From Pratylenchus scribneri (lineage: Eukaryota > Nematoda > Chromadorea > Rhabditida > Pratylenchidae): a DNA stretch of 64,000 bases. Below, one piece after another: positions 7,759 to 31,932 of this stretch (position 1 is the first letter of the stretch; every line of letters starts with the position of its first letter). Below the pieces are notes generated by a model that worked only from the letters and a program-made list of their open reading frames with translations, was not told the origin of the DNA and did no database searches. Location: NCBI GenBank assembly GCA_030063045.1, contig JAQSEB010000090.1:558001-622000 (forward strand), written 5' to 3'. Both the position numbers and the translations under genes were made by a program.

Positions 7759-8146
7759 ATGCGACATTCTTTCATCGCTTTTATTTTCATTCTGCTTATT
7801 TGCCTGTGCATTGTGTTGAATGGTATATTGAATTTTGTTCCAAAAATTAATTATTTATTTAAGATGTTGATGCCAAGAAGAAGAATAAATTCAAGTTCAA
7901 ATTTGAATCCAAGCACAAGTACTTCGCACTCGCACTCGCACGAACGCTGGCACGACCACGGTTACAATTCTCGACCGTATTACAATGATGCTGGTTACAA
8001 TTCTCGACCGAATTTCAATGATGCTTATGGCCTCATGGTCTCAAACTTTGTGTTTGCTATTGGAGGTTTTAATCATTTTAAAAACAATTTTTTTAATTAT
8101 TCTATTTCATTAAGTGTTAGCCTCTTTAATGCTTCTTCGTACTTGA
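7759..8146 (+). pseudogene. Family-1 short secreted protein, frameshifted
   Basis: Exon 1 (7759-7822) encodes a signal peptide starting MRHSFIAFIFILL and ends in phase 1 at gtatatt, as in all family-1 genes. The next exon (from 7864 after tttaag) opens in the Lys/Phe-rich frame shared with the gene at 10120. The last exon (8115-8146) gives VLASLMLLRT and a stop, also shared. Between them the reading frame changes inside a cactcg hexamer run near 7928-7941. No AG lies between there and the resumed frame, so an intron cannot repair it, and the joined length is one base off. Downstream, in the frame of the C-terminus, a NSRPxxNDA motif is repeated twice. Either a pseudogene or an assembly indel. 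Alternatively, without splicing, the frame runs open to 8265. Confidence 0.6.
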
Positions 8147-8257
8147 AATGGAGGGCCAAGAAGAAGAAGAAGGCAGAATGGAAAATGCCTGTTGATTTTT
8201 TATTTTTCGGGTTTTCATTTAATTTCTTTTCTGTCTGTCTTTTTTACATTCATCCTT

Positions 8258-8334
8258 GGGCATAGATGAGAGGAGAATATGTTCCGCCCTCTCTGTTAGA
8301 ATAAAAATGTTGAGAAGGAACAGTGAATAAAATT
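8258..8334 (+). promoter_or_regulatory. Conserved family-1 3' UTR element
   Basis: Starts gggcatagatgagaggagaa and ends at the aataaa signal. It contains tgttcc followed about 30 bases later by ggaaca, able to form a 6-bp stem. The same block follows every family-1 copy in the window. Confidence 0.7.
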
Positions 8335-8734
8335 TTAAAATAATTGAATTGTTTTATTTTTATTTGTTTATTAGGAATATATTGTTTGAGTTAAAAAAAT
8401 GATTAGAGTGATAAATGTTTAGTTCTGAAATATTTGATTTGAAAAAAACCCTTTTTAGTAAGTTAAAATGAAACAAAGATAAAAAATAATAATAATTCTG
8501 GTTTTCCCCCATTGCTTAAGAATTTGGTGAGATAGAGTTAATTTCGCTAAAAATGATAAGAGATATCCGCCAATATTTCCTAAAGACTCATCACAATTGC
8601 ATTTTAATCTAATCTGCGGATCAAAATCAAATGGACTTTTGATTTCCGCATTTCCGGATATATTATTTCATTTTTTAAAAATTCGGAATTTTAAAATACA
8701 AAATAAGCAGAATTATTGAAAAAAACACCAATTA
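8335..8734. other. Intergenic spacer, duplicated
   Basis: No gene seen. The segment around 8565-8670 (atatccgccaa, aatctaatctgc) recurs in degraded form near 11380-11480 and 26590-26690, the same relative place downstream of other family-1 genes or relics. It belongs to the duplicated unit. Confidence 0.5.
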
Positions 8735-10119: not shown

Positions 10120-10419
10120 ATGCGACATTCTTCGATTGTTTTTGCCTTCATTCTGGTGATGGTTCTATGCATTGTGTTGAATGGTATAGACTTTGAATTT
10201 TGCTCCATAAATTAATTATTGTATTTTAGAAATTGAAGCCAAGGATAAATTCAAATTCAAGATCAAGATTAAATCCAAGAACAAGTATTCCAATGATGCT
10301 CATGGCCTTGGTGTTTCCATCTTGGTGTGTGCTATTGGAGGTTTTAATCATTTCAAACAATTTTTTTAATTATTCTATTTTAATAAGTGTTCGCCTCATT
10401 CATGCTTGTACGCACTTGA
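10120..10419 (+). CDS. Family-1 short Lys-rich secreted protein
   Basis: Three exons, 10120-10183, 10230-10340 and 10388-10419, joined in phase 1 throughout, give a 68-aa product. Exon 1 is a 21-residue signal peptide (MRHSSIVFAFILV...). Exon 2 is a Lys/Phe/Ile-rich stretch (KFKFKIKIKSKNKY) leading into a hydrophobic segment. Exon 3 ends VFASFMLVRT and stop. It lacks both Cys-bearing exons of the full-length members, so it keeps only the two ends of the gene. The hydrophobic tail after a secreted stalk could be a membrane anchor or GPI-type signal (inference). It faces the broken minus-strand gene at 12628-11652 and is followed by the conserved 3' UTR. Function unknown. Confidence 0.7.
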
Positions 10420-10534
10420 AATGGAGGACAAAGAAAAAGGAAGCAACCTAGAAAATGCCTGTTGATATTTTATATTTTTCGGTTTTTCATTTAAATAATT
10501 TTCTGTCTATCTTTTTTACATTCATCCAATTTTT

Positions 10535-10612
10535 GGGCGTAGATGAGAGGAGAATATGTTCCGCCCTCTCTGTTAGAATAAAAATGTTGAGAAGGAACAG
10601 TGAATAAAATTT
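10535..10612 (+). promoter_or_regulatory. Conserved family-1 3' UTR element
   Basis: gggcgtagatgagaggagaa through aataaaattt, nearly identical to the block at 8258, while the coding parts of the two genes differ much more. Confidence 0.7.
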
Positions 10613-10654
10613 TAAAATATAATTGAATTTTTTTATTTTCATTTGTTTTTATTA

Positions 10655-10800
10655 GAAATAGAGTTAATTATCCGTGCGCGGGTAATGAAATCACGGATAA
10701 CGAGTAGTGCGGATAATCAAGGCACGGATAAGGGATGGGTAGGCCATTTTCAAAAATTATCCGCGGTTACTAACCGTCCCGTACTCTCTCGACATATTGT
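10655..10800. repeat. Dispersed element with attatccgt motif
   Basis: Locally GC-richer segment with repeated attatccgcg/cggataat motifs (gttaattatccgtgcgcggg). A compact inverted version lies at 52586-52685, so this is one copy of a dispersed repeat. No coding signal. Confidence 0.5.
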
Positions 10801-11300: not shown

Positions 11301-11651
11301 ATCAAAAATATTTCTTGTTCCCCAATTTTTGTTGGATGAAATAGAGTAATTTCGAGAAAATGGTAAGATTGAAATTGTTATGATATCCGCCGAAGTTGCT
11401 CAAAGATTATTTTCACATTTGCATCTAATCTGCAAGTCAAATGGAATTTTTGACTCTTCTGCCCATTTTTATACACTACTCCTTCTCATTTTATTTAAAT
11501 TCGGAATGGCTTAATTATGCCTCATAAATATGATCAAAATATTTTTTTAGTAAATTAAATAACGCGATGTGAATTTATAATTTTTAAAATTTAATAAAAA
11601 AGTTTATAATAATAATCATATCGAAATATCAATGGCAATTTATTCATCCAA

Positions 11652-12628
11652 TCCTTGGCATGCCATTTGCCGGCGGAGGTGGTGGTGGTGGATTATTATT
11701 ATTACAGAAAAAGGAAATATATATTTTACAAAGAATACCCGAAATTGACAAATTCCGGAATTTAAGAGATATAGTTGCTAACGAATTTTTGAAATTTATT
11801 TCTTGATATCATAGGGATCGAGAATAGGCATGTTAGCATTCTACCGTAAATTTTCTTTTAATATCCCAATTTCTAATAATTCCCCTCTTCGTCTTTGAGG
11901 ACTGATTTCTCCTTGAAAGAGAGTGAATTTTATTCTGTATTTTCTTAGTTCTCTATGGCTATGCAAAATTAGCTATAATTTGTTCAAAAATATTCACAAA
12001 TTTAAGATTTAAACCTAAAATTTTCCCAATTTTTGAGGAGTTAAAAAATAATTCCCCGTGGGGTATTAAAAGGGTATTTACAGTATTTTGAAAAGCGGGG
12101 ACTTTTTATTTCTTTAGACCTAAACCGGTTTAGATTTGCAAATTACTGTCTAAGCCATATTAACATTAAGAAATTTAAATTATTACATTGAAAAATGCTG
12201 AATCGAATGAGCCTATTCGCGAAACTCAGGGCTGCTTAAAAGAAGATATGTTCAAAATAAGAGAGTATTCCAAAATCTTGCTAATTTGAGAACTAAGCCA
12301 ATTTCCAAAATTAACATTTATCGAATTTACCGGATGCCAGCTCGTTGTAGCCAATTTGCCGCCACATGTTGGACGGCTGCCAATTGTGCTGCTCCGAGGC
12401 CATTTAATGGTGCAGATGAAGATGGTTGAACTTCTAGAGCACTAAAAAGAGAAGTTTTTAAATTTTTTTTATTTTTACTAACAATGATGGTGCTCGGAAT
12501 AAACGATAGTTCCCGGATTTAGCGGATTTTAGAAATGCGGCTTCAATTGTTGATGAGGGCAAAAATAATAAATGAAAAGAAAAATTGAAAAATAAAAATA
12601 ATAGTAATAAATTTAAAATTTTTGACAT
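11652..12628 (-). pseudogene. Family-2 secreted protein, interrupted copy
   Basis: Exon 1 (12628-12483) starts MSKILNLLLLFLFF, a signal peptide matching the two full family-2 genes, and ends LFRAPS in phase 2, like FRGPS in the 25573 copy. Exon 2 (12441-12331) is in phase and encodes an Ala/Gln-rich stretch (AAQLAAVQHVAANW). A terminal coding stretch near 11700-11652 has a run of prolines and ends NGMPRIG, like EMPRNG at the end of the 22496 gene. Between them lies an inverted-repeat element and I find no exon that restores the frame; the expected acceptor before the Pro run reads ctg, not cag. Most likely a copy broken by the insertion, though a short alternative product cannot be excluded. 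Confidence 0.55.
11820..12330. mobile_element. Dispersed element X, copy 1
   Basis: About 500 bp shared, in inverted orientation, with 24350-24905: ttccccgtggggtattaaaa, tgaggactgatttctcc, and an internal aaaccggttt and aatcgaatgagcctatt. No coding capacity. It sits inside the broken family-2 gene. Confidence 0.65.
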
Positions 12629-13760: not shown

Positions 13761-15111
13761 ATGGAACATTTTTCGATCTTTTTTGCCTTCGTTCTGCTGA
13801 TGGCCCTGGGCGTTGTCATGAATGGTATGAAAATATGAATGATGCATTTTTTCTGATTTCTAAATCTAACAGATGCACTTGAATGTGATCGCGAATTTAA
13901 ATCGGAGGTAGATGGTGTCAAGGGTGGCGGAAAACCAGACAAGCAAAGTTGCGAAGTTGGCGTTACCAGCTGCTTCAAATTCCACTGTGAAATGAATACA
14001 CCATATGAAGCAATGAGTATTCAATTTTATAATTTAAACAAATTTATGACTAATTAATATATTTATAAAAAAATTGATTATTCATATAAAATATAATGTA
14101 AATGACGCAAGATTCTATGATGCAAATTTCAAATTATTCTATAAAATAATATGATATAATCTCGAATGTTTTCAGTGTTAATAAAGGCATGTGGCACTTG
14201 CGATCTCGCGCGTAAGATTCTGATGCGTGGTATGGAAGCAAATGGAAACAATAATACCGGTATTGAACAGAGTGATTGCACCTGCGAGGGTAACAATCTT
14301 GAAAATATTGTGTAAAATTGAATAATTTATAGAAAGTGATGCCAAAAATCCAGCCACTACTACACCTACCACGACTACCACGACTACCACTACTTCCCAG
14401 ACCAAAAATTCTGATAATTCCAATGAAAGTGCCAATAGTGCTTCGGGAAGTGTGATTTCGATGTTTATGCTCGGCATTGAGGGTTTGACGCTATCCGCAA
14501 GAATGGAGTTTTTGAATTTTTTAGTCGCTTCGCTCCGCTATTCACTCCGTTCAATCCCATCCTCCGAACCCTAAACCCTAACCCCTAGCCCTAACTGTAT
14601 TTTTGCAGTTCATTTTGCCAAAAATTATATTTCTATATGAGCGCTGCTCTTCTCTTTTAGGGCTAAAAGTCATTCGTCATGACTGAAAGAGACTGAGGAA
14701 ATGCAGCCTTTATATATTAATTTCGCCACCGGTCCGACCGGTCTTACCGGTACTGTTATTAAAATTCCCTCTTTATAGCAGGTTATACCGGTTAATATTT
14801 CCGGTTATACCGGTAAATTCTGTACCAATATTCATGTTTCTTCTCTTTCCATCGAGTGCTGCTCTTTCTCATCGTTCATTGGTTAGATCAAAATCTGAAG
14901 CTGACTGAGGAAATGTCGCATTTAATAGTTCCCATCCCCGATCTGACCTGCTCTAATAATAAAAATGTTATAAAGAATTTATTTTCCAAATTTTTCCAAA
15001 AACTCCATTCTTTCAGATAGTGCCGAGGGTTTTTTAATTGACATATTTTCATATATTAATTTATTTTAAATTTCAAAAGTGTTCATTTCTTTCATCCGTG
15101 TTCGTCATTGA
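13761..15111 (+). CDS. Family-1 Cys-rich secreted protein, Thr-rich
   Basis: Five exons: 13761-13824, 13873-14016, 14176-14289, 14333-14482 and 15080-15111. All junctions are in phase 1, giving 167 aa. Exon 1 is the signal peptide (MEHFSIFFAFVLLMALGVV). Exons 2-3 carry eight cysteines in the family pattern C...C-x6-C-x4-C...C-x2-C...C-x-C (for example CGTC and CTC). Exon 4 is a short Thr/Pro stalk (PTTTTTTT-like, suited to O-glycosylation) followed by a Ser/Asn stretch and a hydrophobic segment that runs into exon 5 (VFISFIRVRH, stop). The last intron holds a 538-bp transposon insertion, but both splice sites survive. Secreted with a C-terminal anchor or GPI signal is an inference. I know no named family; a host-directed effector is possible. 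Confidence 0.78.
14487..15024. mobile_element. hAT-like MITE with 8-bp target duplication
   Basis: The terminal inverted repeats share aagaatggagttttt and ctatc (left gacgctatccg..., right ...cagatagtgcc). They are flanked by a direct 8-bp duplication, gagggttt, at 14479-14486 and 15025-15032. Removing the element and one duplication restores the intron seen in the paralogues (ggag/gttt...). The core contains accctaaaccctaacccct and a ccggttataccggt palindrome. Non-autonomous: no transposase frame. An 8-bp duplication is typical of hAT elements. Confidence 0.85.
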
Positions 15112-15229
15112 ATAAAGGTGGCAAAAGAAGAAGAAGAAGACAAAATAAATGATGGTGCTATTTTCGGGAATTTTCAAATTAATTTTTTTTCTTTTCTCTC
15201 TTTTTCTTTTCATTTTTTTTCAAATTTTT

Positions 15230-15297
15230 GGGCGTAGATGAGAGGAGAATATGTTCCGCCCTTAGAATAAAATTGTTGAAGGAACAATGAATAAAAA
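15230..15297 (+). promoter_or_regulatory. Conserved family-1 3' UTR element, shortened
   Basis: Same block as at 8258, but ctctctgtt after the cgccc is missing. The tgttcc/ggaaca pair and aataaa remain. Confidence 0.65.
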
Positions 15298-15299
15298 TT

Positions 15300-16070
15300 T
15301 CAATGGAATTTGTATTTTTTTAATTTTAAACATTGCATGTGTAATCAAGTTAACTGTGCTCACTCAGCTCAGCCTCTGAGCACAGTCAGATTGGCTCAAT
15401 TAATAATTTTTTTCTCAAAAATATATTTATATATCTATATTATATATTTAATATTTAAATTGATATTTTTTAAAATAAATAAATAACTATAAGAAAATTA
15501 AAAAGTCAGCTCCGGTTGGATTTAATAATCTGTTGGCTTGGCCCATGCATTCCCCAGATCCAATTAATAAAAATTTACTTCAAAATTTATACAAGTTTAA
15601 TATTTTTATTCCGCAATCAGCTTATCAGCATAAAGAAGAAAGCCATAAGTTGAATAACTCGAAATAAAAAACGACAGAAAAAAAGAGATGGATATTAAAA
15701 GAGGGATATCTTTATTGTTTGCCCATCCTTGCTTTCTTCTAATGCATCTTCACAAAGAGCACAAGCAGAAGTATGCAAATTCCAATGATTTGATCAAAAA
15801 ATCCTAAAAAAAAATAACATATTCATTCATATTTTTTTAATTCAAGGATTTTTTCATAATTTTTGATGAGTCAAACAAACAATTAAATTTAAAAAAAAAG
15901 TAAAAATATATGAGATTTTTGTTTGTTTGTGATTAAGAAAATCTTTGATATTATTTTACTGCCATTTTTGCCGTTCGCTTTGTTAACTGGGTTACAAAGG
16001 GAGTTGTTGCAAAATTGGATGTCAACAATTTCGGCATCCATCGCATGGACACCGCAATTACCATACTCTC
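15300..16070. other. Intergenic, possible orphan minus exon
   Basis: Mostly unassigned. On the minus strand a short open stretch about 15806-15738 follows a tttttag acceptor and encodes FDQIIGICILLLVLFVKMH with a stop, a hydrophobic terminal exon without a recognisable partner. A plus-strand frame near 15923-16080 runs into the minisatellite and is not convincing. Confidence 0.25.
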
Positions 16071-16072
16071 AG

Positions 16073-16729: not shown

Positions 16730-17483
16730 ATGAAGCAATTTTCGATCATTTTTGCCTTCATTCTACTGATGGCCCTGGGCGTTGTCTTGAATGGTATGAA
16801 AATTTAAATTGTATTCACACAATGTTAAATCACAAAAATCCGGATTTATATGATTTAATAAATTAAAATTTTTTCAAAAATGAATTTATTGTGCCCAAAC
16901 TAAATTATTGATTTTTAAGAAGCAGCATTGGAATGCGAGACCGAATCTAAATCGAATATTAACGGAGTAAAGGAAGAAGATAAAGATGGTAAAGAAACTT
17001 GCGGGCCATTAGTGATGAAATGCTTCAAATTCAAATGCGAGGCGGGTGCTAACAAGAGTAAATAATATGAAAATATGCAAATTCTGATTTATATTTTTAT
17101 TCAGTGAAAGCCAAGGGATGCGGCACTTGCCTTGATCTCTATTTTTTGATGAGCAGAAAAGGTGTACCCAAATATGAATTGGATAAGGCTGGATGCAAGT
17201 GCGAAGAGGGTAATATCATTCATCACGAATTTTTAATTAAATTTTTTAAGAAAATGCCAAAAATACAGACAAACCTAATCCGGACAATGGCAAACCGAAA
17301 CCGGCGGACAATGGAAAATCTAATGAGAAAGTCAAAAGTACCGATTCCGAAAGTGACAATGGCTCTTTTGGGCGTATGATTTCCATCATGGCGATTGGCA
17401 TCGGAGGTTTAACAATTTCAAAATACCTAATTAAATTTCAATTTTAAACAGTGTTCGCCTCCTTCATGCTTGTTCTTCATTGA
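16730..17483 (+). CDS. Family-1 Cys-rich secreted protein, short PK stalk
   Basis: Exons 16730-16793, 16920-17057, 17105-17209, 17251-17406 and 17452-17483, all phase 1, encode 164 aa. The signal peptide MKQFSIIFAFILLMALGVV is followed by the eight-Cys region (CGPLVMKCFKFKC in exon 2, CGTC and CKC in exon 3). A short Pro/Lys/Asn stalk (KPNPDNGKPKPADNGK) and an acidic Ser/Asp stretch lead to the hydrophobic end MISIMAIGIGVFASFMLVLH. Sibling of 20169-21320, sharing exon 1 and the C-terminus almost exactly but with only about two stalk repeats. The 3' side (17.4-18.7 kb) is a segmental duplicate of 21.2-22.7 kb. Function unknown; secreted and probably membrane- or GPI-anchored. Confidence 0.8.
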
Positions 17484-17607
17484 GGTGGAGGCCAAGAAGA
17501 AGAAGAAGGCAAAGAAATGAAAATGCCTATTGAATGTTGATTTTTCATTTTCGGGGGTTTTATTCAATTAATTTTTGTTCTGTCTTTTCTTTTTTTCTTT
17601 TAATTTT

Positions 17608-17683
17608 GGGCGTAGATGAGAGGAGAATATGTTCCACCCTCTCTGTTAGAATTCAAATGTTGAAGGAACAATGGAATAAAATT
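17608..17683 (+). promoter_or_regulatory. Conserved family-1 3' UTR element
   Basis: gggcgtagatgagaggagaa block with tgttcc/ggaaca and an aataaa signal. One base change (ccaccc for ccgccc) is shared with the copy at 21449. Confidence 0.7.
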
Positions 17684-18024
17684 TAAAAATTACTGAATTT
17701 ATTTTTTTCAGTGTACTGTGTAATGTATAATTAAAAAAGATTTAGGGGCTTTAAATCTTTCAAGCCTTAAAATTTGAATTTAAAAAAAGTTAAGAGAAGA
17801 TATTTGTTTCAATTTGGATTGAAAGAAATTGAAACTAAAATATTTCGGAGAAATTGAGTCTGGTGGGACGAAGAGATAAATTATATAATTCTGTGAACTA
17901 CCAATTTCGAAGAACAATTTTGTTGTGATTTCAGGAATATAATTAGGGGAAAAAGGTGTGAAAACAAAAAGTATTCTGCTCTTGATGTGATGTGAAATTA
18001 AAATTTCGATAAGACTGAAAAATG

Positions 18025-18475: not shown

Positions 18476-18551
18476 ATTACTTTATAATTGTTTAAAAATT
18501 GAATGAACATTTTAGTATAATATATAGAAAATATTAATGTCAATTTATTCA

Positions 18552-20168: not shown

Positions 20169-21320
20169 ATGAAGCATTTTTCGATCTTTTTTACCTTCAT
20201 TCTGCTGATGGCTATGGGCGTTGTCATGAATGGTATGGAAACATGAATTGGATTTTAAAATGAGCTAAATTAATAAAATCAAAATTTTTTAATGATATAA
20301 TTAATTTTAGAAAAATTATTTTCCATGTTTTTACCTATTTTTTTTCTTTTCTATCTTTTAAGAAATTTGTATAAATAAATTGAAAAATGTCCTACTAAAA
20401 TTATACATTTTTTTGTTACATTTCCCATAAATATTTTTTCTGATTTTTATATCTAAACTGATCATTAATGAATAATTAATTAAATACTAATATAATTGAA
20501 TTTTTCAGAAGCTATTGAATTTGAATGCGATTCCGGACTTAAATCGGAGTTAAATGGTGAAAAGGGAAAAGATGACTTTGATGAGCATAAAGTAACCTGC
20601 GGACCAGGCGTTATGAAATGCACCAAATTGAAGTGCGATACGGAAAATTTCAAGAGTAATAAATTTGAAATAAATCTAAAAATTCACTGATGAATTTTAG
20701 TGGAAACTAAAGGCTGCGGCAGGTGCTATAATGCTTGGTTTGAAATTGTCAAAGCATCTGGACTCACCCAGTCCCAACTTAAACAGCAGCTTGGATGCAC
20801 CTGCGAAGGTATAAAAACCAAGAGAATATTTGTTAAAATGGAATTTTTAGAAAGTGATGCCAAAAATCCAGACATGCCTAAACCGAATCCGGACGAGGGT
20901 AAACCGAAGCCGGACGAGCCTAAACCTAATCCGGACGAGGGTAAACCGAAACCGGACGAGCCCAAACCTAATCCGGACGAGGGTAAACCGAAGCCAGAGG
21001 AGCCCAAACCTAATCCGGACGAGGGTAAACCGAAGCCGGAGGAGCCCAAACCTAATCCGGACGAGGGTAAACCGAAGCCAAACGAGCCTAAACCTAATCC
21101 GGACAATGGCAAACCGAAGCCGGACAGTGGTAAACCGAAACCGGATGAGGATAAACCCAAGCAAAAGGCCAAAACTTCCGATTCCGAAAGTGACAATGGC
21201 TCATTCGGTCGTATGATTTCCATCATGGTGATTGGCATCGGAGGTTTAACAATTTTAAAATATTTTTTTAAATTTCTATTTTAAACAGTGTTCGCCTCCT
21301 TCATTCTTATTCTTCATTGA
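20169..21320 (+). CDS. Family-1 Cys-rich secreted protein, long repeat stalk
   Basis: Exons 20169-20232, 20509-20655, 20701-20808, 20851-21243 and 21289-21320, all phase 1, encode 247 aa. The signal peptide (MKHFSIFFTFILLMAMGVV) is followed by eight cysteines (CGPGVMKCTKLKC; CGRC; CTC). Exon 4 is an extended Pro/Lys/Asp stalk of about six 14-residue repeats of the type KPNPDEGKPKPDEP, then KTSDSESDNGS and the hydrophobic end MISIMVIGIGVFASFILILH. The regular charged-proline stalk suggests a rigid spacer holding a Cys-rich head away from a membrane (inference). Overlapping frames on both strands are shadows of the 42-bp repeat. No named homologue recognised; nematode surface or effector protein are both possible. 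Confidence 0.82.
20877..21150 (+). repeat. 42-bp coding minisatellite in stalk exon
   Basis: In-frame units of 42 bp (14 codons) containing cctaatccggacgagggtaa and ccgaagccggacgagcc. The sibling at 17251-17406 has only one or two, so copy number has changed since duplication. Confidence 0.92.
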
Positions 21321-21448
21321 AGTGGGGGCCAGGAAGATGAAAGAAGAAGGCAGAGAAATGAAAATGCCTATTGAAAGTTGATTTTTCATTTTCGGGGGTT
21401 TTATTCAATTAATTTTTGTTCTGTCTTTTCTTTTTTTCTTTTAATTTT

Positions 21449-21525
21449 GGGCGTAGATGAGAGGAGAATATGTTCCACCCTCTCTGTTAGAATTCAAATG
21501 TTGAAGGAACAATGGAATAAAATTT
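21449..21525 (+). promoter_or_regulatory. Conserved family-1 3' UTR element
   Basis: Identical over most of its length to the copy at 17608, including ccaccc and gaattcaaatgttgaaggaa, with tgttcc/ggaaca and aataaa. Confidence 0.7.
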
Positions 21526-21849
21526 AAATTTTATTGAATTTATTTTTTTCAGTGTACTGTGTAATGTATAATTGAAAATGATTTAGGGGCTCCTTAAAAT
21601 TTGAATTTAAAAAACTTAAGAGAAGATATTTGTTTCAATTTGGATTGAAAGAAATTGAAACTAAATATTTCGGAGAAAAGGAGTCTGATGGGACGAACAG
21701 ATAAATTATATAATTCTGTGAACTACCAATTTCGAAGAACATTTTTGTTTCGATTTTAGGGATATAATTAGGGGAAAAAGGTGTGAAAACAAAAAGTATT
21801 CTGCTCTTGATGTGATGTGAAATTAAAATTTCAATAAGACTAAAAAATG

Positions 21850-22425
21850 TGTTTTTGTTTAGAATGCATTTTCGATTAACTAAAAAAAATGTGTTTTCAA
21901 TTAACTAAGAAAAATGTTTTTTCAATTAACTAAGAAAAATGTGTTTTCGATTAACTAAGAAAAATGTGTTTTCAATTAACTAAGAAAAATATGTTTTCGA
22001 TTAACTAAGAAAATTTCTTTTCGATTAAATAAGAAAAATGTGTTTTCGAATAACTAAGAAAAATGTGTTTTCCATTAACTAAGAAAAATGTGTTTTCGAT
22101 TAACTAAGAAAAATGTGTTTTCGATTAACTAAGAAAAATGTGTTTTCGATTAATTAAGAGAAATGTGTTTTCGATTAACCAAAATGTGTTTTCGATTAAC
22201 TAAGAAAAATGTGTTTTCGATTAATTAAGAAAAATGTGTTTTCGATTAACCAAAAATGTGTTTTCGATTAACTAAGAAAAATGTGTTTTTTTCATTAACT
22301 AAGAAAAATGTGTTTTCGATTAACTAAGAAAAATGTGTTTTCGATTAACTAAGAAAAATGTGTTTTCCATTAACTAAAAAAATTTTTTCGATTAATTAAC
22401 AAAATGTGCTTTCGATTAGAAAATT
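21850..22425. repeat. 25-bp minisatellite, array 2
   Basis: About twenty-two copies of the tgtgttttcgattaactaag unit. It forms the 3' flank of the family-2 gene and duplicates 18025-18475 with a different copy number. Confidence 0.95.
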
Positions 22426-22495
22426 ACTTTATAATTGTTTAAAAATTGAATGAACATTTTATAATATATAGAAAATATTAATGTCAATTTATTCA

Positions 22496-25400
22496 TCATC
22501 CATTTCTTGGCATTTCGCCATTTTCCAAGACTGCCAATGCTAAACCGGGTTGACGCATATTTCTCATTGATTTCCAATTTTTTAATTTCTTCGCTGCTAA
22601 CAAAGGAGAAACCGCAATTCCCTCTCCGATAAATTCGGTACCCAATGAGCCAGCAACGCCAAAGGTGAAACCACCAACTTTATCCAAAAAGGGTATTCCA
22701 GTCATTGCACCTAGGGCAGTGCCCAATGCTTTTCCTCCGTATAGTCCAAGGCCTTCAATGCCGCCACCAAAAAACAATTTAGACAAATTCTTAGACTTAG
22801 TCTTCTTGAGCATTCTGCCAGTTTTGCCTTGGCGCATTTGATCCAAATACATTTTCCACCTATTTTTATTGATTAATCAAATTTAATATTATTTTTAATG
22901 ATTTATCGATGAAATTAAAATTTTTAAATTATGAAATTAATTTCTTCATATTCTCTTTAAAATATTGTTTAAAAATGTAATTATATAATTCTTATATTTT
23001 ATTCAAATATTTATAATTTTTTCCAAACATTTTATGTTTTTGTTTTTAGATAAATTTTGTATTTTTTTATACAAAAATTATTTCTTTTTATATTATTTTT
23101 AAATAATTTGTACAAAATATTTATTTACTATTTATTTAAATTCTAAAATTTTTTATTTACACATTTTTATCATTTTGAATACGCCCAAAAATCCTACCCT
23201 TTAAAATTTTCTTGCCAAGGCAATTGTTTTTTCCAATAATTTTTTCTTATTCCTCTGGTCAATCTTTTTGCAGCTCTTGACGTAATATACGCTCCAAAGC
23301 CACCAACAGCGGCACCAGCAACGGCACCCACTGGTCCGGCCGCTGCAAATCCAGCTGCTCCCAACAATGTTTGAGCAGCTATACGACCACCATATCCAGC
23401 TCCAATCCCTACACCAAATGTCGGCAAGTTTTTGAATTGTAACGCATTTGCCAATTTAAGACATCCTGCTTCCATTAGTTTGTAATTCCGCTTCCAGCAA
23501 AATCTACGAAATTTTCGTTTCTTTTCACGGACACTGACAAATAAATATAATATTTTTAATAATATTATAATTAGATATATACCCTTCTCTCACTTTCTCT
23601 CTCAATTTTTCAAAACTGAAATAAATATATGTTTTTAAATTTTTAAAAAATTTTTTATACCGAGTTGGCTCTATTTTAAGTTCCCCTTCGTAATTTTCAT
23701 CATGCAATTGGCCATAAGTATGATACCAACTGAAACAAAAATACATAGCTTACAGAAAATATCGAAAAATTTGCTAATTCCACTGAATTTATTTGATGCT
23801 AGAATAGTAAATTTTACAAATCTGTGCTCAGCACAAGAATAGGCTAATTTGTTCGGCTTGGTCGATTTAGTTTCTGAAATTTTAATTTCGATTCGTATGA
23901 GGTTTTGTAAGCTAAAAATATGCCTTATTTAAAACTAAACATACACAAAAATCAACAGCGATTTTGCAGACGAAATTTTCTGAAAAAAAAGAGAAAAATT
24001 GCCAGAGATTTTTGTGTGAATTTATTAGCTTAATTAACCCTTTAGTAGTTTTGTTAAATATATCTGATAAGTTTTATTTCGGTTTATAACTTCACAAATT
24101 AACTAAATCGACCATTTAAAAATTGAAACTAGATAAAAAGCATCTAGCTAATTCGGGAATAGCAAATTTCCATAATTAATTCTAACCCAGTATGTTTTTT
24201 TGACAGCTCATCATAATATTGTTGTTTTGATAATGGCGGTGTTCTGAAAAAGAAATAAATTAAAAAGCACATTATAAATTTATTCTATATGTTACAGTCA
24301 ATAATATTAAAAAATTGTTTCAAATTCTGAAAAATAGCTAAAAGCATATCTAATGTAAATACTCTTTTAATACCCCATGGGGAATTGTTTTTTAATCCCT
24401 CAAAAAATGGGAAAAGTTGGTGTCTATCTCCTTAAATGGGCATTTTTGAACAAATTATAGCGAATTTTATAGAACCTTAGGCAACTAAGAAAATGCGATA
24501 AAAATTTTTTTATAAAATTTACCTTTTCTTAAGTTTATTAGTCCTCAAAATCGATAGTGGAGAATTATAAGAGACTGGGGTATTAGAAGAGATTTTACGG
24601 TATCTAATTTTGGAAACTTTGGCTTCTAGACTTTATTTAGATTCGAAAACGGGTTTTCATATGCTTCGAAATGATTAATTTAATTTATGAAATTTCAATA
24701 TAAAAATTTATTTTAATTAGGTCAAAAGATAGTAAAACAAAACCGGTTTGGGTTTAAATAATAGATTAATTTTTTAATACTCAAACCGGTTTTTAAAAGA
24801 AATTTCATAGAATAAATCGACCATTCAGAATCAAATGAGCCTATTCTTGAATATGTTTGAAGTCTAAAAACCGAAATTTTCAAAATTTAATAGGTCAGTT
24901 TCAAATTTCGAAATTTATTTATTTCCTATATTTTTTTGTAACATATATTTTTTTAACAAACATTGTTTTTCCTGATTCTCTTGGGAGGTATTTTATTGTA
25001 GGTGGTCCTGGAGGACTGAATAAAAAAATATAAATTTATTTATATTCTTTAGCAAACCCTGCTGATCCTTCAATTCCATTTGTTGGTGTCTGAAAAAATA
25101 AAAAATATATTTATTTTATTTTTTTCTAACTAAGGTAATCGGCGGATAAATGAAGGTCTTTACTGGTGGCGGTGGTGGAGGACTGAAAAATAAAATATAT
25201 ATTTTTATTTATTTATTTTTTTAACAAACTATGATGGTCTTCGGATGTCTTTTTTCTGAAAAAGAAAATAATATAATTTTTTTTATTTTTTTTACAAACA
25301 ATGATGGTCCTTCCACTTTTTGGTGGTGGAGGTGGAGGACTTAAAAAGAAAAAAATATATTATTTATTTTTAACAAACCGTAATGGTCTTCGGATGCCTG

Positions 25401-25573
25401 TAGATGGTGAACGACTAAAAAGGAAATATATAATCTAATATTTATTTTATTTTAACGAACGATGGCCCCCGGAATGAGCGTTGATTGGAAATGCGACCTT
25501 CAACTGATGATGAAGGCAACAATAAATGTAAGGCAAAATTGAAGAATAAAAATAATAGTAATAAATTTAACAT
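22496..25573 (-). CDS. Family-2 Pro-rich/Gly-zipper secreted protein
   Basis: Twelve exons: 25573-25461, 25414-25379, 25339-25300, 25255-25230, 25182-25131, 25089-25058, 25015-24962, 24243-24187, 23729-23661, 23615-23583, 23533-23198 and 22859-22496. They join in frame to 403 aa. Exon 1 is a signal peptide (MLNLLLLFLFFNFALHLLL). Exons 2-8 are tiny and Pro-rich (PPPPPPKSG, PPPPPPVK). Exons 9-11 turn basic (REKKRKFRRFCWKR), then enter a Gly/Ala-rich segment with GxxxG spacing (GVGIGAGYGGR, GAVAGAAVGGFGA). Exon 12 has a second Gly-rich domain ending EMPRNG. The Gly-zipper pattern suggests membrane insertion or self-assembly (inference). Tail to tail with the family-1 gene at 20169. Not a family I recognise. 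Micro-exon splicing needs RNA evidence, but every junction keeps phase. Confidence 0.72.
23790..24175. mobile_element. Intronic inverted-repeat element
   Basis: ggtcgatttagtttctgaaa near 23860 is answered inverted by taactaaatcgacc near 24102, with outer matches (gctaattt / gctaattcggg). It lies in the intron between exons 8 and 9 of the family-2 gene. Termini uncertain. Confidence 0.45.
24350..24905. mobile_element. Dispersed element X, copy 2
   Basis: Inverted relative of 11820-12330 (ttttaataccccatggggaa, tattagtcctcaaaatc, aaaccggttt, aatcaaatgagcctattc). Inserted in the long intron between exons 7 and 8 of the family-2 gene, which accounts for most of that intron's length. Confidence 0.65.
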
Positions 25574-26040
25574 TTTTGACATTATTTTTTATTCATTGCT
25601 AACTGAAATATTTTTAAAAAATATAAAATAAGAATATAAAATAAATAAGCTAATGGAATTTTTTTCCATTTGACAAAAAAAAAAAATAATAATTTTTTCT
25701 TTGATTATTTTCAGAATAAATTTGTTCCATTATATTTTTCATTTTTGCCGCCAAAATTCTTTTTTTTTTATTTTTTACCGATAATAATTCTTTTTATTTT
25801 TGCCGTTAATAATTCACTCAATTCGCCATAAAATTAATATGTAAAATTAATTCAGTCAAAGCTAAATTATTCGAATTTTAATTTATAAATTTTAGAAAAA
25901 AATAATCAAAAAATAAATAATTAAAATGGTTGATTATAATATTTTTAAATCAAATTAATTCATTTTTAATTGTGTTAATTTTTATTTTATTTTTCATTCC
26001 AATCTTTATTCATTCATTCATTTGTCAATCATGAATTAAA
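25574..26040 (-). promoter_or_regulatory. Conserved 5' flank of family 2
   Basis: Shares ordered blocks with 12629-13000 and 31933-32345 upstream of the signal-peptide exon, including the transcribed leader aatttattactattattttt-like text. No gene inside. Confidence 0.5.
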
Positions 26041-26324
26041 TAAAAATTTATTTGATCTACTAATTAATTTGAATATCAATTATAGCAAATTTAGATTTTA
26101 ATGTTGGTTTTGGATAAGTTAGTTTTTTAAACTTAAATCGTTTTAGCTACGAAATTAGGATTGATCTTATTAAATCGATTCTCCTTGCTTAAATTATAAT
26201 GTGAAAGTCATTTATAATATTTCTTTAATAAAAACAGCATAAAAATATTCGCCAAAATTACCAAATTTATTCAACAATTAAATGAACAATAAATATATAT
26301 ATTATTTTTATCTCAATAAAAATA

Positions 26325-26390
26325 AAAATGTTGAATTAACAATGAATAAAATTTAAAAACAATTGAATTTTTTATTATAATTTTTGGCGA
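26325..26390 (+). pseudogene. Trace of a lost family-1 gene (3' end)
   Basis: aaaatgttgaattaacaatg followed by aataaaatttaaaa and aattgaattttttatt matches the end of the family-1 3' UTR and downstream sequence. No exon precedes it, so the partner of the family-2 gene at 31932 seems to have been lost. Confidence 0.45.
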
Positions 26391-26810
26391 TATTTATATT
26401 GCCGAATATAGTTTAGCTTTAAATTTAGAGTTCTGAAAAATCTTTTTAAACATAATTTTTTCTAAAAGCTCTTCTTAATTAGGATTAAAATTTGAATTTG
26501 AAAAGACTAACAATTTTTCAAAAAAATTCATTATAGCATATGGAAAATCGAGATGGATTAAATTAGCGAAAAATAGTATTGTTTGTGAGTGTCATATCCG
26601 ACGAAATTTACCGAACTTATCTGCTTCTGCACATCAAACTTTACTTTGTAAGCTTCTGGCCCATCTCAATTTGTTTAAGTTCAGAATTGCATTAATTTAA
26701 ATAATGGTTTATAAATTTGATCGCAATTTTAATAAATCAAAAAACATTAAAATTTATATTGAAATAATATATGATTTATAAAAAATAATTCAAAAAATTT
26801 GACAATTTAT

Positions 26811-29800
26811 TTATCCATTCCTTGGCGTTGCCGGTGGCAAATCGGGTTGATGCACACTTCTCGCGGCTTTCAATTTTTGTTTTTTCCTAAAAGGAGATTC
26901 CGCAATTCCTCCGGCTGCCCTTCCTCCCATATGGCCATAAGCATAATCACGAACCCAGTCAACAGAGGGAAAGTGGGCCTCTGGTGTTGCTCCTAAATGT
27001 GCAAATCCCTCAATGCCACTGTGGCCCAATGTTGTCCCATACAAGCCGCCAAGTCCACTAGCCATGCCAACAACAGGTATTTTAATCAAATTCTTAGGCT
27101 TCAACACTTTGCTTGCCTCATCCCGAATTTGATCCACATACATATTAGGGCTATTTAAATTATTAAAAATTGGAAAAATAAATGTAATTTCTAATTGGAT
27201 TTCCAATTGGATATCATTTAATCAAAAAAATATTTTTTCTCGATAAATATATTTTTTAAGGCCATATAATAAGTTGGCCAAATCTACTATTATTCCTATC
27301 CTACTATAGCTTTAGCCCTAAACCTATCCTGGTCAGATCTAACCCTAAGCTTTGACACATATTTAGAGAACCAATATGGCCTGAAAAGAATATAAGGCTC
27401 AATTGCACTTTAGCCGACCTTTCGCCGTTTAAACGACCTTCGCCGTTTTTAAACGACCAAAGAAAAGTTTAGGCGACTCTTCGCTGTTTAAGCGACCAAT
27501 AAAAATTTTAATGGAGATTAAAACTATCAACGCTAAAATCTGTCACAAAAAAGTATAGGCGGCAGCGACCTATCTTTCGCTTAAATGCTCCATGCCCTAA
27601 ACTTGGCCTAGCCTAAACAAAACCTCGCAGTGTGGGCACTAACTTTTGGCTAGCAGAACTTAAATCCCTTTTAATTTTAGTCAAAAATTTGTTGCTTAAT
27701 TAAATGAAATAAAAGCCAAATAGGAATCCAGGGTAGGTTAAGACCAGGTTGTAGAGATCGGAGAATGGGATTTTTGGGTTTAGGATTTAGGCTTCAAGTC
27801 TAAAAAGGCATTTTCTTTTAAAAAATGGTTTATTTATGATGAATTTTGCCTTAAATCTTCCATTTTCATTTAATTTTTTGATGAATTTTCATAAAGTTGA
27901 AAGGTCGCCTAAGATTTTTATTGGTCGCTTAAACCGAGAAAGTTCGCCTAAACTCCGAAAGATCGTTTAAACGGCGAAAGGGTCAGCTAAACTTCAATTG
28001 AGTCGAATATTATTTTTCTATACTAAAAATTTTAATATAAATTAAAATTATTATTTTCTATTTTTGTGGTTTATGAAAAGATTGAAATCTCTCCCCCCCC
28101 CCCCCCCCCCCTCCCAATTCATTTCATATATACTTTTTTTTGTTCATTAATCCAACAAATCACTTTAAAATGTAAAATCATACCCTTTATAATTTTCTTG
28201 CCATGGCAATTGTTCCATTTGATAATTGTTTGCTATTCCTGTGACCAATTTTTTTGCAACATTTGATGTAATATATGATACTGGGCCAGCAACAGCAATC
28301 CCAACAATGGCACCCCCTGGTCCTCCTAGTGCTAATCCAGTTGCTCCCAACGCTGCTTTGGCTGCTACAGCACCACCGAATCCAGCTGCCATCCCCACTA
28401 CTTCCTTTGCCACTTCTAATTTCAGATTACTCCTAATGACAAATATATTTAATAATAACAATATATTATCTACCGGTGTGGATTCATATCGGGCCGAAAA
28501 TTATCATCATTAACAATGTTATCTGGTTGTGTATATTGATGTGGAGGACTGAAAAAATATACATTTAGATTTAATTTTTTAATATTATATATATAAGTAT
28601 ATAGATATTAAGAATATATTTACCGGTGTGGATTTCTATCTGGCCGGAATTTATCATTATAATAACCATTATAATAATCTTGTGGAGGACTGAAAGAATA
28701 TATATTTGAATTTAATTTTTTAATATAATATATATATAAGTATATAGATATTAAGAATATATTTACCGGTGTGGATTTCTATCTGGCCGGAATTTATCAT
28801 TATAATAACCATTATAATAATCTTGTGGAGGACTGAAAGAATATATATTTGAATTTAATTTTTTAATATAATATATATATAAGTATATAGATATTAAGAA
28901 TATATTTACCGGTGTGGATTTCTATCTGGCCGGAATTTATCATTATAATAACCATTATAATAATCTTGTGGAGGACTGAAAAAATATATATTTGAATTTA
29001 ATTTTTTAATATAATATATATATAAGTATATAGATATTAAGAATATATTTACCGGGGTGGATTTCTATCTGGCCGGAATTTATCATTATAATAACCATTA
29101 TAATAATCTAGTGGAGGACTGAAAAAAATATATTTAAATTTTATTTTTTGATATAATATATATATAAGTATATAGATATTAAGAATATATTTACCGGGGT
29201 GGATTTCTATCTGGCCGGAATTTATCATTATAATAACCATTATAATAATCTTCTGGTGGTAATCGTATTCCTGGAGAACTGAGGAAGAAAATATATTTAT
29301 AAATTTAACTTTTAACGATTATATATAAATATATAAGTATGTATAGATATTTATAATAAATTTATTTACCGGGATGGATTCCTATCGGGCCGGAAATTAT
29401 TGTCATTATTAATATTGTCATCTAGTATTGTAAATTGAGGTGCAGGACTGAAATAGAAAATATATTTCAATTTAATTTTTTAATAATATCTATAAATATA
29501 ATTATATATAGATATATATACTAAAAATTTATCTATAATATAATTATATATATATATATATAGATATATTTAAAAATTTATCTATAAATATAATTAGATA
29601 TAGATAAGATATATATAAAAATCTATTTACGGGAATGGCCTCCTTACGGACGGGAAATGAGTACGTTGAAGTGGAGGACTGAAAAAGAAAATATATTTAA
29701 ATTTATATAATTTTTAACTAACTATTATTATAAAAAAATATAAGTTATTTTTTTAAAAATTTATTTACCCGGAAGGACTATCGGACCGGAAAAGTGTACT

Positions 29801-31932
29801 TTGATGTGCAAAACTGGAAAAGAAAATATATTTAAATTTAATTTATTAATAAGCCATAAAATTAATATAATATATATAGATTATTTATAATTTATTTACC
29901 TGGATGGATTCCAATCGTGTCGGAAATTATCATTATTATTAGCATCAAAATAATTTTCTGATAGCAATTTTATACCTGGAGAACTGTAAAAGAAAATATA
30001 TAAATATAAATTACAAATGATAATATATATGTATATATAAGTATATTGATATTTATAGTTATTTATTTACCGTGATGGATTCCTATCGGGCCGGATATTA
30101 TCATAATTATGAGGATCAAAATAATTTTCTGACAGTAATCGATTACCCGGAGAACTGAAAAAAAAATACATTTTTTTAAATTATATTTTTTAGCAAACAA
30201 TAATTTTTATAAATATATTATATATAGAATATAGATATTTATAATAATTTATTTACGGAAATGGGTTCCTATGGGACGGGAAATGTGTACGTTGATGTGG
30301 AGGACTGAAAAAGAAAATATATTTAAATATATTTTTTTAACGAACAATGATGTTTTTGGTATGCCATTTATTGGTATTTCACGTCGAGGACTGAAAAATA
30401 AAATTATTTAAATTTATTGTTTTTTCAAAAACTTCGCTGGACTTTCGATGATATTTACTGGTATTGGAATTCGATGACTGAAAAATAAAATTATTTAAAT
30501 TTATTTTTTTTATCAAACTTTGTTGGTCCTGGGATCACATTTCTTGGAGGAGGTGGTGGTGCGCGAACACTGAAAAAAGAATATATATATATATATATAT
30601 ATATTTAATTCTCATTAACAAACTGTGATTCTCTCCGGAATGAACGATGTTGCTATATAAATATAGAGGTTTTTATTTATTTCGGTAAGTGATGTATCAT
30701 TCGATAGAGCTTGACGAGTGAACCGATATAGGGGTGGGATAAATTGATTGAAAATTCTGGATAAAAATTTATTGTTTCACAAAAATTTCAAATGTGAAGG
30801 GTCACTTTTTTTTGAGTTGGCAAAAAATTTTTCAGATTTTTTTGTACACCTATCTCGATACGGTGATGTTCGGATCTGCGATTGGTTTCGCATAAAATTC
30901 AGTAAAAAAATGACCCTTAGATAAGTTTCCCGCATGGGGTTTAGAGATAGGTTAGGGTAGGGCTTAGGGCAAGAATAGGAATTTAAAACATCTGCTGACA
31001 TATCGCCTGTGTGCATATATCTCTGCCAAAAAATGAAATTTTTAATTACTCGATAATCTTTTTAACTTGTTGAAAATTATCACTAAACTCGACGCAATTT
31101 CTTCCACCCTTATTAGATCTTATTTGGTATTTGTGTCGTTTGGTTCCTTCTTTTTTGTTCATCAGATGGGAAAAGTGATGGATCCCTCTTATTGGACATC
31201 AGCAGGATTCAGGATTAGGATAAGGGTGATTAAAGGTGTTACCGAACATGAAATCCCTATCCCTGATTGACCTTACATGAACCTAACCCTAACCCTAGCC
31301 ATGATAACCTATAGGGAAAACCCTTCACTTTCCTCAGTCAGTTGAGGAAAAGAAGCCCGTTATACAAATACTAATTGATTTACTCGTTAAGCTATATCGA
31401 ATGGTAACATAATTAGAGATCGGACCAATATCAAGATTTATCAAGATTTGGTCAAGATCAAGAACAAGATTTATCAAGATCTCTTGAAAAAATCTTGATC
31501 GAAGAAATTTTGGGCAGAATTTTGGTAAATTTTTTAAAATTTTAGATAAAAATTTACCATTAAACAGCTTTTTTGGCTAAAATTTATCGTTTGGACCATT
31601 TTTGACTAAAATTTTTCGATTCATGACCATTTTTGGAAAAAAAATTTGGAAATTTTTTTTTTAAATTTGAAATTTTGATCTTAATCTTGAACCAAAATCC
31701 ATCAAGATTTATCAAAGATCTTGGGTTCAAGATCTTGATTGACCACTCTGTCCGAACTCTAATCATAATTGACTTGTTCAGATCACAAAAATAAAAAAGC
31801 CCATACGTATGAGGAGCGACGATAAGAATAAGAATGGCGGCTTACAACTGCTGCTGATGAGGGCAACGATAAAAAATGAAGAGCAAAATTGAAGAAGAAA
31901 AATAATAGTAATAAATTTAATAATTTTGACAT
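26811..31932 (-). CDS. Family-2 secreted protein with amplified exons
   Basis: Nineteen exons: 31932-31807, 30652-30624, 30569-30519, 30477-30433, 30390-30346, 30304-30257, 30154-30071, 29983-29900, 29813-29769, 29678-29631, 29447-29370, 29278-29195, 29118-29053, 28975-28910, 28832-28767, 28689-28624, 28548-28474, 28432-28184 and 27150-26811. They total 1695 nt, 564 aa. Exon 1 is a signal peptide (MSKLLNLLLLFFFFNFALHF). Exons 3-17 are small, each starting and ending in phase 2, and encode Pro-, Tyr- and Asn-rich segments with a recurring FRPDRNP motif; exons 13-16 are near-identical tandem copies (DYYNGYYNDKFRPDRNP). Exon 18 is Gly/Ala-rich with GxxxG spacing and ends LPWQENYKG, as in the 25573 gene. 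Exon 19 ends PRNG. A repeat-bearing secreted protein with a Gly-zipper end; function unknown, possibly structural or host-directed. Confidence 0.72.
27380..28010. mobile_element. Inverted-repeat element with cgccgtttaaacg arms
   Basis: The left arm (ctcaattgcactttagccga, tttcgccgtttaaacgacc, ttcgctgtttaagcgacc) is repeated inverted on the right (ggtcgcttaaacc, gatcgtttaaacggcgaaag, aaacttcaattgagtc). About 630 bp, no transposase. It fills the last intron of the family-2 gene; tail arms near 100 bp suggest a foldback type. Confidence 0.75.
28091..28112. repeat. Poly-C tract
   Basis: A run of about twenty cytosines interrupted once by t, next to cccctccc, in an otherwise AT-rich intron. Similar C runs flank the element at 47010-47479. 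Confidence 0.9.
28624..29195 (-). repeat. 143-bp tandem exon-plus-intron repeat
   Basis: Four units of 142-143 bp, each with one 66-nt exon and its intron (exon ends at 28624, 28767, 28910 and 29053), plus a fifth related exon ending at 29195. Introns are almost as similar as exons (ttttaatataatatatatat), so the duplication is recent. Exon length is a multiple of three with 2-2 phase, so copy number can change without breaking the frame. Confidence 0.93.
30692..31411. mobile_element. Inverted-repeat element in intron 1
   Basis: The left end atgtatcattcgatagagct is matched inverted at the right end (agctatatcgaatggtaaca). The core contains gtgaagggtca/acccttcact pairs and acctaaccctaaccctagcc. 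Non-coding, about 720 bp. Confidence 0.7.
31412..31770. mobile_element. Inverted-repeat element with atcaagatt motifs
   Basis: Starts aattagagatcggaccaata and ends inverted (gtccgaactctaatcat). The arms are dense in tatcaagatt/aatcttgat. It directly adjoins the preceding element; together they make up nearly all of intron 1 of the family-2 gene. Confidence 0.65.

What the first reader, a model, noticed from the sequence alone, without database searches (positions are those of the whole stretch)
7759..31932. Array of paired, convergent secreted-protein genes of two unrelated families
Plus-strand Cys-rich/stalked secreted genes and minus-strand Pro-rich/Gly-zipper secreted genes alternate tail to tail in at least three units (10120 with 12628; 16730 or the 18775 relic with the 18552 relic; 20169 with 25573), and the 31932 gene keeps a trace of a lost partner at 26325. 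Both families have signal peptides, a repeat-built middle and a hydrophobic end. Repeated co-amplification of an unrelated pair suggests a functional or regulatory unit, for example co-secreted surface or effector proteins.
Basis: partly seen in the sequence, partly recalled or inferred. Interest (0 to 1): 0.85.

Follow-up and report, generated by a model that had tools for sequence, protein, structure and literature searches.

The report
Two secreted-protein gene families, loosely paired
In a nematode genome, two unrelated families of genes for probably secreted proteins sit tail to tail in a small cluster, but a genome-wide count suggests that they are neighbours by ancestry and local duplication rather than a fixed functional pair; one family is built from many tiny, copy-number-variable exons.

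Summary
The genes are there, but the picture changes. The plus-strand family (P) has a secretory N-terminus, an 8-cysteine domain, a Lys/Pro repeat stalk and a hydrophobic tail. The window holds five P genes plus a relic; one (13761) was missed and two (7759, 10120) show no Cys domain. The minus-strand family (M) is not a set of single ORFs: the 25582 gene is a 12-exon model, all GT-AG and in frame (Pro-rich microexons, then two Gly-rich exons), and the 31932 gene has about 15 microexons, one tandemly multiplied with its intron.
Genome-wide, both families share five related arrays. Of 40 scored P 3'UTR sites, 10 face an M gene and 18 have no M within 20 kb. Of 21 M genes or fragments, 10 are faced by P; three lie alone on other contigs. 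The one published effector promoter motif tested gave no support. Best reading: two families at one ancestral convergent locus, each amplifying independently. The exon-number-variable microexon gene is more interesting than the pairing. Function is inferred.

The parts
7759..8359 (+). P-family gene, short form: signal exon, no Cys exon found, family 3'UTR; reading frame between signal exon and tail ambiguous
10120..10660 (+). P-family short gene, exons 10120-10183 and 10230-10369 (67 aa: signal peptide-like N-terminus, Lys-rich stretch, family tail) plus 3'UTR
11574..12628 (-). mShort: short M-family gene (signal exon, one Ala/Gln-rich exon, MPRxG-type end); no Gly-rich exons found; middle not fully resolved
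13761..15326 (+).
16730..17708 (+). P-family gene, 4 exons, 8 Cys, short Lys/Pro stalk, family tail, 3'UTR
18481..18725 (-). M-A relic: 3' end of a second Gly-rich exon only
18762..19096 (+). P-family relic: tail fragment and 3'UTR
20169..21551 (+). P-family gene, exons 20169-20232, 20509-20655, 20701-20808, 20851-21284 (250 aa; 8 Cys; 42-bp stalk repeat x6.8; hydrophobic tail), then 3'UTR
22428..25582 (-). M-A gene: 12 exons 25582-25461, 25414-25379, 25339-25300, 25255-25230, 25182-25131, 25089-25058, 25015-24962, 24243-24187, 23729-23661, 23615-23583, 23533-23198, 22859-22496; all introns GT-AG, one open frame of 406 aa; 3' end to 22428 by family match
26321..26383 (+). fragment of a P-family 3'UTR (lost partner of the 31932 gene)
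26810..31932 (-). M-B gene: signal exon at 31932, about 15 candidate microexons between 30569 and 28474, Gly-rich exons at about 28430-28186 and 27150-26814; 5' part between 31840 and 30570 not resolved
28540..29256 (-). tandemly multiplied microexon plus intron (143-bp unit x5.0, 97% matches); module PPPQDYYNGYYNDKFRPDRNPH
21869..22418 (.). 25-bp tandem repeat in the P/M intergenic gap (also 18044-18471)

Best explanation
This is one ancestral nematode locus where a tandemly expanding family of Cys-rich, repeat-stalked, probably secreted or surface-anchored proteins (P) borders, tail to tail, an unrelated family of probably secreted proteins built from Pro-rich microexons and Gly-rich exons (M). 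Shown: the gene anatomy at the DNA level; dN/dS below 1 in the M exon sets; five related arrays with the same general order; at least one block duplication carrying the P/M junction; P far from M, and M without P. Inferred: a non-adaptive origin of the pairing, in which unequal exchange between tandem repeats copies whatever lies between them, so neighbouring genes are sometimes co-copied. Also inferred: P acts outside cells through a disulfide-bonded head carried on a length-variable stalk, and M presents a variable number of Pro/Tyr/Asn-rich modules joined to Gly-zipper segments, the first of which is hydrophobic enough to associate with membranes. In both, repeat number varies while the ends are conserved.
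For: P 3'UTR sites: 40 scored of 45 candidates genome-wide, 10 facing M, 18 with no M within 20 kb. A second P probe (upstream region plus signal exon) gave 29 places, of which 7 lie more than 10 kb from any listed M gene (compared with the M list). Two further P genes at C90:484501-491500 with no M landmark beside them; one has all eight cysteines, the other a stop in its second Cys exon. M exons found only in the five arrays plus C111, C19 and C137. Segmental duplication 17270-18716 vs 21110-22660 at 91-92%. 12-exon M model with all GT-AG introns and one open frame. Mean dN/dS 0.27-0.34 for the M-B exons, 0.10-0.27 for the lone M exons, 0.50-0.69 for M-A (no significance test). Module copies 5, 7, 1, 2 and 1 in C90, C68, C173, C169 and C27; parts of M-B were not held for C173, C169 and C27, but the stretch between the same flanking microexons was. 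Stalk Lys-Pro units: 13 (20169), 2 (16730), 14 (C173 gene), 1 (C68 gene).
Against: The P/mShort junction is kept in 5 of 5 arrays and P/M-A in 4 of 5, as a functional pair would also show. All gene models lack RNA support. Signal peptides are read from hydrophobicity and family likeness only. P counts rest on a 3'UTR probe that also finds relics, and are lower bounds. An M upstream probe also gave six weak matches on C186, C198, C189, C25 (two) and C173:450572 (47-107 bases, non-coding part of the probe) that I did not follow, so a few more M genes cannot be excluded. The second Gly-rich exon shows no hydrophobic segment at the threshold used, and the zipper-motif excess is modest. The P CysB comparisons are too short for a dN/dS statement.
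Confidence: 0.66

Rival explanations
1. The convergent P/M pair is a functional or regulatory unit (co-secreted surface or effector proteins), kept together by selection.
For: P/mShort junction in 5 of 5 arrays and P/M-A in 4 of 5; a block duplication and a lost-partner trace.
Against: 30 of 40 P sites and 11 of 21 M genes or fragments are not in such a pair. The five arrays are homologous, so they are not independent. C27 has no P before M-A, and the P partner of the C173 M-A is an interrupted gene. The upstream regions of the two families are each conserved within the family and differ by eye (no formal comparison). The gap between the P 3'UTR match and the M 3' end is 437-1544 bp in the ten pairs, so overlapping antisense transcripts are not indicated.
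Confidence: 0.15
2. Both families are ordinary nematode structural or surface-coat (cuticle, glycocalyx or amphid-secretion) genes, not plant-directed effectors, amplified locally.
For: Mel-DOG motif absent from 18 of 18 P upstream regions and in 3 of 17 M regions only beyond -840 (motif and its -350 to -150 peak from passages of PMC8158474). The 20169 protein has a C-terminal hydrophobic tail like a membrane or lipid-anchor signal.
Against: No Pfam family above cut-off, so no match to a known cuticle or coat protein. Mel-DOG marks dorsal-gland genes, so its absence does not exclude other secretory cells.
Confidence: 0.35
3. Most of the array is decaying: chance ORFs and pseudogenes without function.
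For: Several relics and broken copies (C90 18481-19096; stops in the C68 and C27 M-C exons; an interrupted P gene on C173; a stop in one P gene at C90:484.5-486 kb).
Against: Long phase-consistent GT-AG models; dN/dS of 0.10-0.50 in five of the six M Gly-rich exon sets and 0.69 in the sixth (no significance test); eight invariant cysteines between P paralogues at 33-52% identity to the 20169 exons (11 of 14 and 11 of 12 exon hits aligned, partial and stop-bearing ones and one duplicate left out).
Confidence: 0.07

Closest known systems
map-1 family of Meloidogyne (PMC3377709, passages seen)
   Same: Taxonomically restricted, secreted root-knot nematode family; variable number and arrangement of internal modules; evolution by gene and module duplication and loss.
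   Different: MAP-1 has 58- and 13-aa modules and is described as expansin-like; P has a 14-residue (42-bp) stalk repeat after an 8-Cys domain, and M-B has a 22-residue module in its own exon. No Pfam expansin match.
HYP effectors of potato cyst nematodes (PMC4177990, passages seen)
   Same: Secretory N-terminus and a repeat tract of very variable copy number between gene copies, including a Pro-rich and a Lys/Glu-rich type; the P stalk, like HYP, is a single open stretch.
   Different: The HYP repeat tract is one ORF in all cases described there; in M-B every module is a separate exon. The motifs differ. P has a Cys-rich head.
Aphid bicycle genes (PMC9168663, passages seen)
   Same: Rapidly evolving putative effector proteins encoded by many tiny internal exons of one uniform phase.
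   Different: Almost all bicycle internal exons start at codon position 2; M-B microexons read as starting at codon position 3. No sequence similarity is claimed; likeness of architecture only.
Schistosome micro-exon genes (recalled; PMC4413821 mentions microexon genes in one passage)
   Same: Secreted proteins built from short symmetric exons (recalled).
   Different: Not compared by sequence; different phylum.

Membership tests
map-1 (Meloidogyne) | 58-aa and 13-aa internal modules | tested here: not met
   Module lengths here are 14 residues (42 bp) and 22 residues (66-base exon); module sequences were not compared with MAP-1
map-1 (Meloidogyne) | expansin-like domain | tested here: not met
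   No expansin family listed in Pfam scans of six P and three M queries
HYP effectors | repeat tract in a single ORF | tested here: inconclusive
   Met by the P stalk (one exon), not met by M-B (one module per exon)
HYP effectors | subfamily repeat motifs (RGGG-type, EKPPPKY, Lys/Glu-rich) | tested here: not met
   The two motifs spelled out (RGGG, EKPPPKY) are not seen by eye in the translations; the Lys/Glu-rich motif could not be compared in detail
Aphid bicycle genes | many unusually small internal exons | tested here: met
   M-A: 9 of 10 internal exons of 26-69 nt; M-B: 15 candidates, 14 of them 45-84 nt
Aphid bicycle genes | internal exons start at codon position 2 | tested here: not met
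   M-B microexons read as starting at codon position 3 (frame checked by eye into the Gly-rich exon)
Nematode ET module / Ly6-type Cys domains (recalled) | Pfam profile match | tested here: not met
   No such family listed for six P proteins or domains (E up to 1 and up to 5); only unrelated sub-threshold hits
Known Gly-zipper Pfam families (recalled) | Pfam profile match | tested here: not met
   None listed for three M queries; only an RTX hit at E 0.16 for M-B, below cut-off
Dorsal-gland effectors of Meloidogyne | Mel-DOG TGCMCTT in the proximal promoter | tested here: not met
   0 of 18 P upstream regions; 3 of 17 M regions, at -841, -851 and -937 (one M region only 565 bases long)
Dorsal-gland effectors of Meloidogyne | gland-cell expression | not testable with these tools

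The most novel reading that the evidence does not exclude
The M family is a nematode microexon gene system in which whole exon-intron units are gained and lost between genome copies (module exons 5, 7, 1, 2 and 1), making a modular secreted protein with Gly-zipper, membrane-associating ends; and the convergent P/M unit is kept in every array because the stalked Cys-rich P protein and the M protein act together at the same secretory surface.
Probability: 0.12. Interest if true: 0.75.

Novelty: new variant of a known kind. Interest (0 to 1): 0.42.

Why it matters
Modular, repeat-number-variable secreted proteins are suspected to set host specificity in plant-parasitic nematodes. Here the variation seems to arise by copying whole microexon-intron units as well as in-exon repeats, in two neighbouring families for which no outside relative was found in the databases searched. 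If expressed in secretory cells they would be new candidate surface or effector proteins, and gene finders that expect long ORFs could miss M. The genome-wide count also shows how easily a tail-to-tail cluster can look like a functional unit.

Tried and rejected
Homologues outside this genome: none at E <= 0.001 among about 5.8 billion proteins for M-A (7,997 candidates scored) or for the P N-terminus and Cys domain (6 candidates). That collection may hold few nematodes, so this is weak evidence. PDB by sequence, P Cys domain only: one chance-level hit, E 0.88. Pfam: only sub-threshold hits. Rfam: nothing at gathering scores in the window. AlphaFold of the two Gly-rich exons with two-row window alignments: mean pLDDT 49-50, no usable fold, so no fold search was run. 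Mel-DOG co-regulation: not found; other motifs shared by P and M were not searched for. A conserved hairpin in the P 3'UTR element: the alignment fold gave only a short helix of about six pairs, not pursued. Antisense pairing through overlapping 3' ends: considered, not indicated, because the gaps are 437-1544 bp. Literature (open-access PMC library only): 'Meloidogyne' + 'micro-exon' + 'effector', 0 papers; 'Meloidogyne' + 'microexon', 8 papers, none on secreted microexon genes of Meloidogyne by title and the start of the abstract shown (one passage of one of them seen); 'root-knot nematode' + 'effector' + 'glycine zipper', 1 unrelated paper; convergent effector pairs, 4 papers, none on this topic by title.
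Full report
What the window is. The window is bases 558001-622000 of contig C90 of a 227-Mb assembly in 276 contigs. G+C is 0.24-0.39 in 2-kb steps beyond the satellite-rich first 8 kb. A polyploid root-knot nematode is the likely source (inference; no name was available).

The plus-strand family (P). The 20169 gene splices as four exons with GT-AG introns into 250 residues: hydrophobic N-terminus, eight cysteines in two exons, a 42-bp repeat stalk (PKPNPDEGKPKPDE type, 6.8 copies) and a hydrophobic C-terminal tail. The 16730 gene has the same four exons with a short stalk. The 10120 gene keeps the signal exon, a Lys-rich stretch and the family tail but no Cys exons; no Cys exon was found in 7759 either. 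In alignments of 11 of 14 first-Cys-exon hits and 11 of 12 second-Cys-exon hits (partial, stop-bearing and one duplicate row left out) the eight cysteines are invariant, at 33-52% identity to the 20169 exons. Two more P genes lie about 75 kb upstream on the same contig: one with all eight cysteines, one with a stop in its second Cys exon. The former has a Lys-rich exon like that of the 10120 gene ahead of its Cys exons, which suggests that the short forms arose by losing Cys exons (inference).

The minus-strand family (M). The 25582 gene gives a 12-exon model, every intron GT-AG and one open frame of 406 residues: hydrophobic N-terminus, Pro-rich microexons, a basic middle and two Gly-rich exons. 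Nine of its ten internal exons are 26-69 nt long. In the 31932 gene my pattern gave 16 candidate exons; I dropped one that held stops. Of the other 15, between 30569 and 28474, 14 are 45-84 nt and divisible by three; the odd one (19 nt) was probably cut at an internal GT. They read as starting at codon position 3, and the last runs in frame into the first Gly-rich exon (by eye). The 5' part is unresolved. One 66-nt exon with its intron is repeated in tandem (143 bp x5.0, 97% matches). Counts of its module differ between arrays: 5, 7, 1, 2 and 1 in C90, C68, C173, C169 and C27. Parts of this gene were not held for C173, C169 and C27, but the stretch between the same flanking microexons was. Zipper-type motifs exceed local shuffles modestly: M-A 10 against a mean of 5.6 (reached in 49 of 1000 shuffles), the first M-B Gly-rich exon 6 against 2.8 (32 of 1000), the second 3 against 1.5 (198 of 1000, not notable). 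Hydrophobic segments were found in the first Gly-rich exon of both genes but not in the second. The 12628 gene is a short M form without Gly-rich exons.

Coding constraint. Mean Nei-Gojobori dN/dS between arrays was 0.69 and 0.50 for the two M-A exons, 0.34 and 0.27 for M-B, 0.27 and 0.10 for the lone M genes, and 0.36 for the mShort exon. For P it was 0.22 for the CysA exon of the 13761 type and 0.45 and 0.36 for the two exons of the 16730 type (one pair each). For the 13761 CysB exon it was nominally 5.1, on 37 codons with almost no synonymous changes, and for the three remaining P sets there were no synonymous changes at all, so those are uninformative. No significance test was made.

Arrays and pairing. 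Five contigs carry the same locus. In order: P genes, then mShort facing them, then zero to three intact or broken P genes (in C90 three genes and the M-A and P relics), then M-A, M-B and in two arrays M-C, all opposite to P. The P/mShort junction is present in 5 of 5 arrays and P/M-A in 4 of 5; on C27 no P lies between mShort and M-A, and the P facing M-A on C173 is an interrupted gene. The third unit of the finding (16730 with the 18552 relic) was seen only on C90 and belongs to a duplication of 17270-18716 against 21110-22660 (90.7% over 1204 and 91.9% over 727 aligned bases). The relic is mosaic: its upstream half reads like the C27/C169 M-A, its end like the C90 M-A. The trace at 26321-26383 scores 68.9 bits against a maximum of 44.6 in 500 shuffles and 39.2 in 39 control segments; in the matching gaps of the other four arrays the best scores were 31.9-35.6.

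Genome-wide test. A P 3'UTR probe found 40 scored sites of 45 candidates, a lower bound that includes relics. Against a list of 21 M genes or fragments that I compiled by hand (approximate ends), ten P sites have an opposed M as next feature within 5 kb, and 18 have no M within 20 kb or on the contig; 10 of the 21 M entries are faced by a P. A second P probe, upstream region plus signal exon, gave 29 places, 7 of them more than 10 kb from any listed M. M exons outside the arrays were found only on C111, C19 and C137. The M upstream probe gave, besides known genes, six weak matches of 47-107 bases on C186, C198, C189, C25 (two) and C173:450572, in the non-coding part of the probe, not followed. 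18 kb around the C137 gene and about 5 kb around the other two show no P landmark, and the P probes list no site on those contigs. The C173:482301-490300 stretch has a P-like tail and 3'UTR and no Gly-rich or mShort exon hit, only short A/T-rich matches to M signal and upstream probes (E 4e-6 or weaker). The C90:484501-491500 stretch shows no M hit.

Regulation. The P and M upstream regions are each conserved within their own family and look different by eye; no formal search for shared motifs was made. The published Mel-DOG motif TGCMCTT, which peaks 150-350 bp upstream of dorsal-gland effector genes (passages of PMC8158474), is absent from 18 of 18 P upstream regions and present in 3 of 17 M regions, all beyond -840; about 2.5 and 2.3 hits were expected from the window average. 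One of the 18 P starts, on C169, was placed by offset, and one M region was only 565 bases long. This does not exclude other secretory cells.

How it most likely works. Shown: two unrelated families with secretory-type N-termini, dN/dS below 1 in the M sets, repeat-number variation by in-exon repeats (P) and by whole microexon-intron units (M), and at least one co-duplication of a convergent junction. Inferred: unequal exchange in a repeat-rich tandem locus copies P, M or both; the pairing is a by-product. P is likely an extracellular disulfide-bonded head on a length-variable stalk, possibly membrane-anchored; M is likely a secreted modular protein whose first Gly-rich segment associates with membranes. 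Neither is tested.

Comparison. Likeness to map-1 and HYP genes is at the level of modular, repeat-number-variable secreted proteins, and likeness to bicycle genes at the level of exon architecture. Tested defining features are not met for map-1 (module lengths, no expansin match) or for bicycle genes (exon phase), and are mixed for HYP. I file it as a new variant of a known kind. The interest lies mainly in the microexon copy-number variation.

Noticed in passing
8240-8350, 10517-10627, 15212-15322, 17590-17700, 21431-21541: A stretch of about 45 nt in the P 3'UTR (GGGCGTAGATGAGAGGAGAATATGTTCCGCCCTCTCTGTTAGAAT type) looks better conserved than the coding sequence; 16 copies found in held loci with a loose pattern, including a distant P-like locus on C41 and one on C173.
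   Followed up: partly
8749-9797, 13238-13307, 16114-16405: 28-bp (and 56-bp) tandem repeats upstream of P genes; a 25-bp repeat lies between P and M at 18044-18471 and 21869-22418 and also at 45033-45388, outside the array.
   Followed up: no
11842-12085 and 24351-24602: A related element of about 250 bp lies in opposite orientations inside the mShort and the M-A gene, in an intron by the M-A model (73.6% identity).
   Followed up: no
327-7163: Satellite array with 154-bp and 318-bp periods at the left edge of the window.
   Followed up: no
C173:622534-628340 (loci L063, L064, L014): A P gene on C173 whose first Cys exon is split by about 4.6 kb of other sequence and whose second Cys exon holds a stop.
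   Followed up: no
C68:353360-353728 (L021) and C27:744932-745261 (L019): A further M-type gene (M-C) behind M-B, with an in-frame stop in one exon on each contig.
   Followed up: no
C173:483820-516341: Five P-like 3'UTR sites spaced about 7-9 kb apart, about 100 kb from the array; the first has a P-like tail with a stop and no M exon beside it.
   Followed up: partly
C186:54664, C198:447183, C189:219406, C25:250930 and 251367, C173:450572: Weak short matches to the non-coding part of the M upstream probe; chance A/T-rich likeness or further M genes.
   Followed up: no
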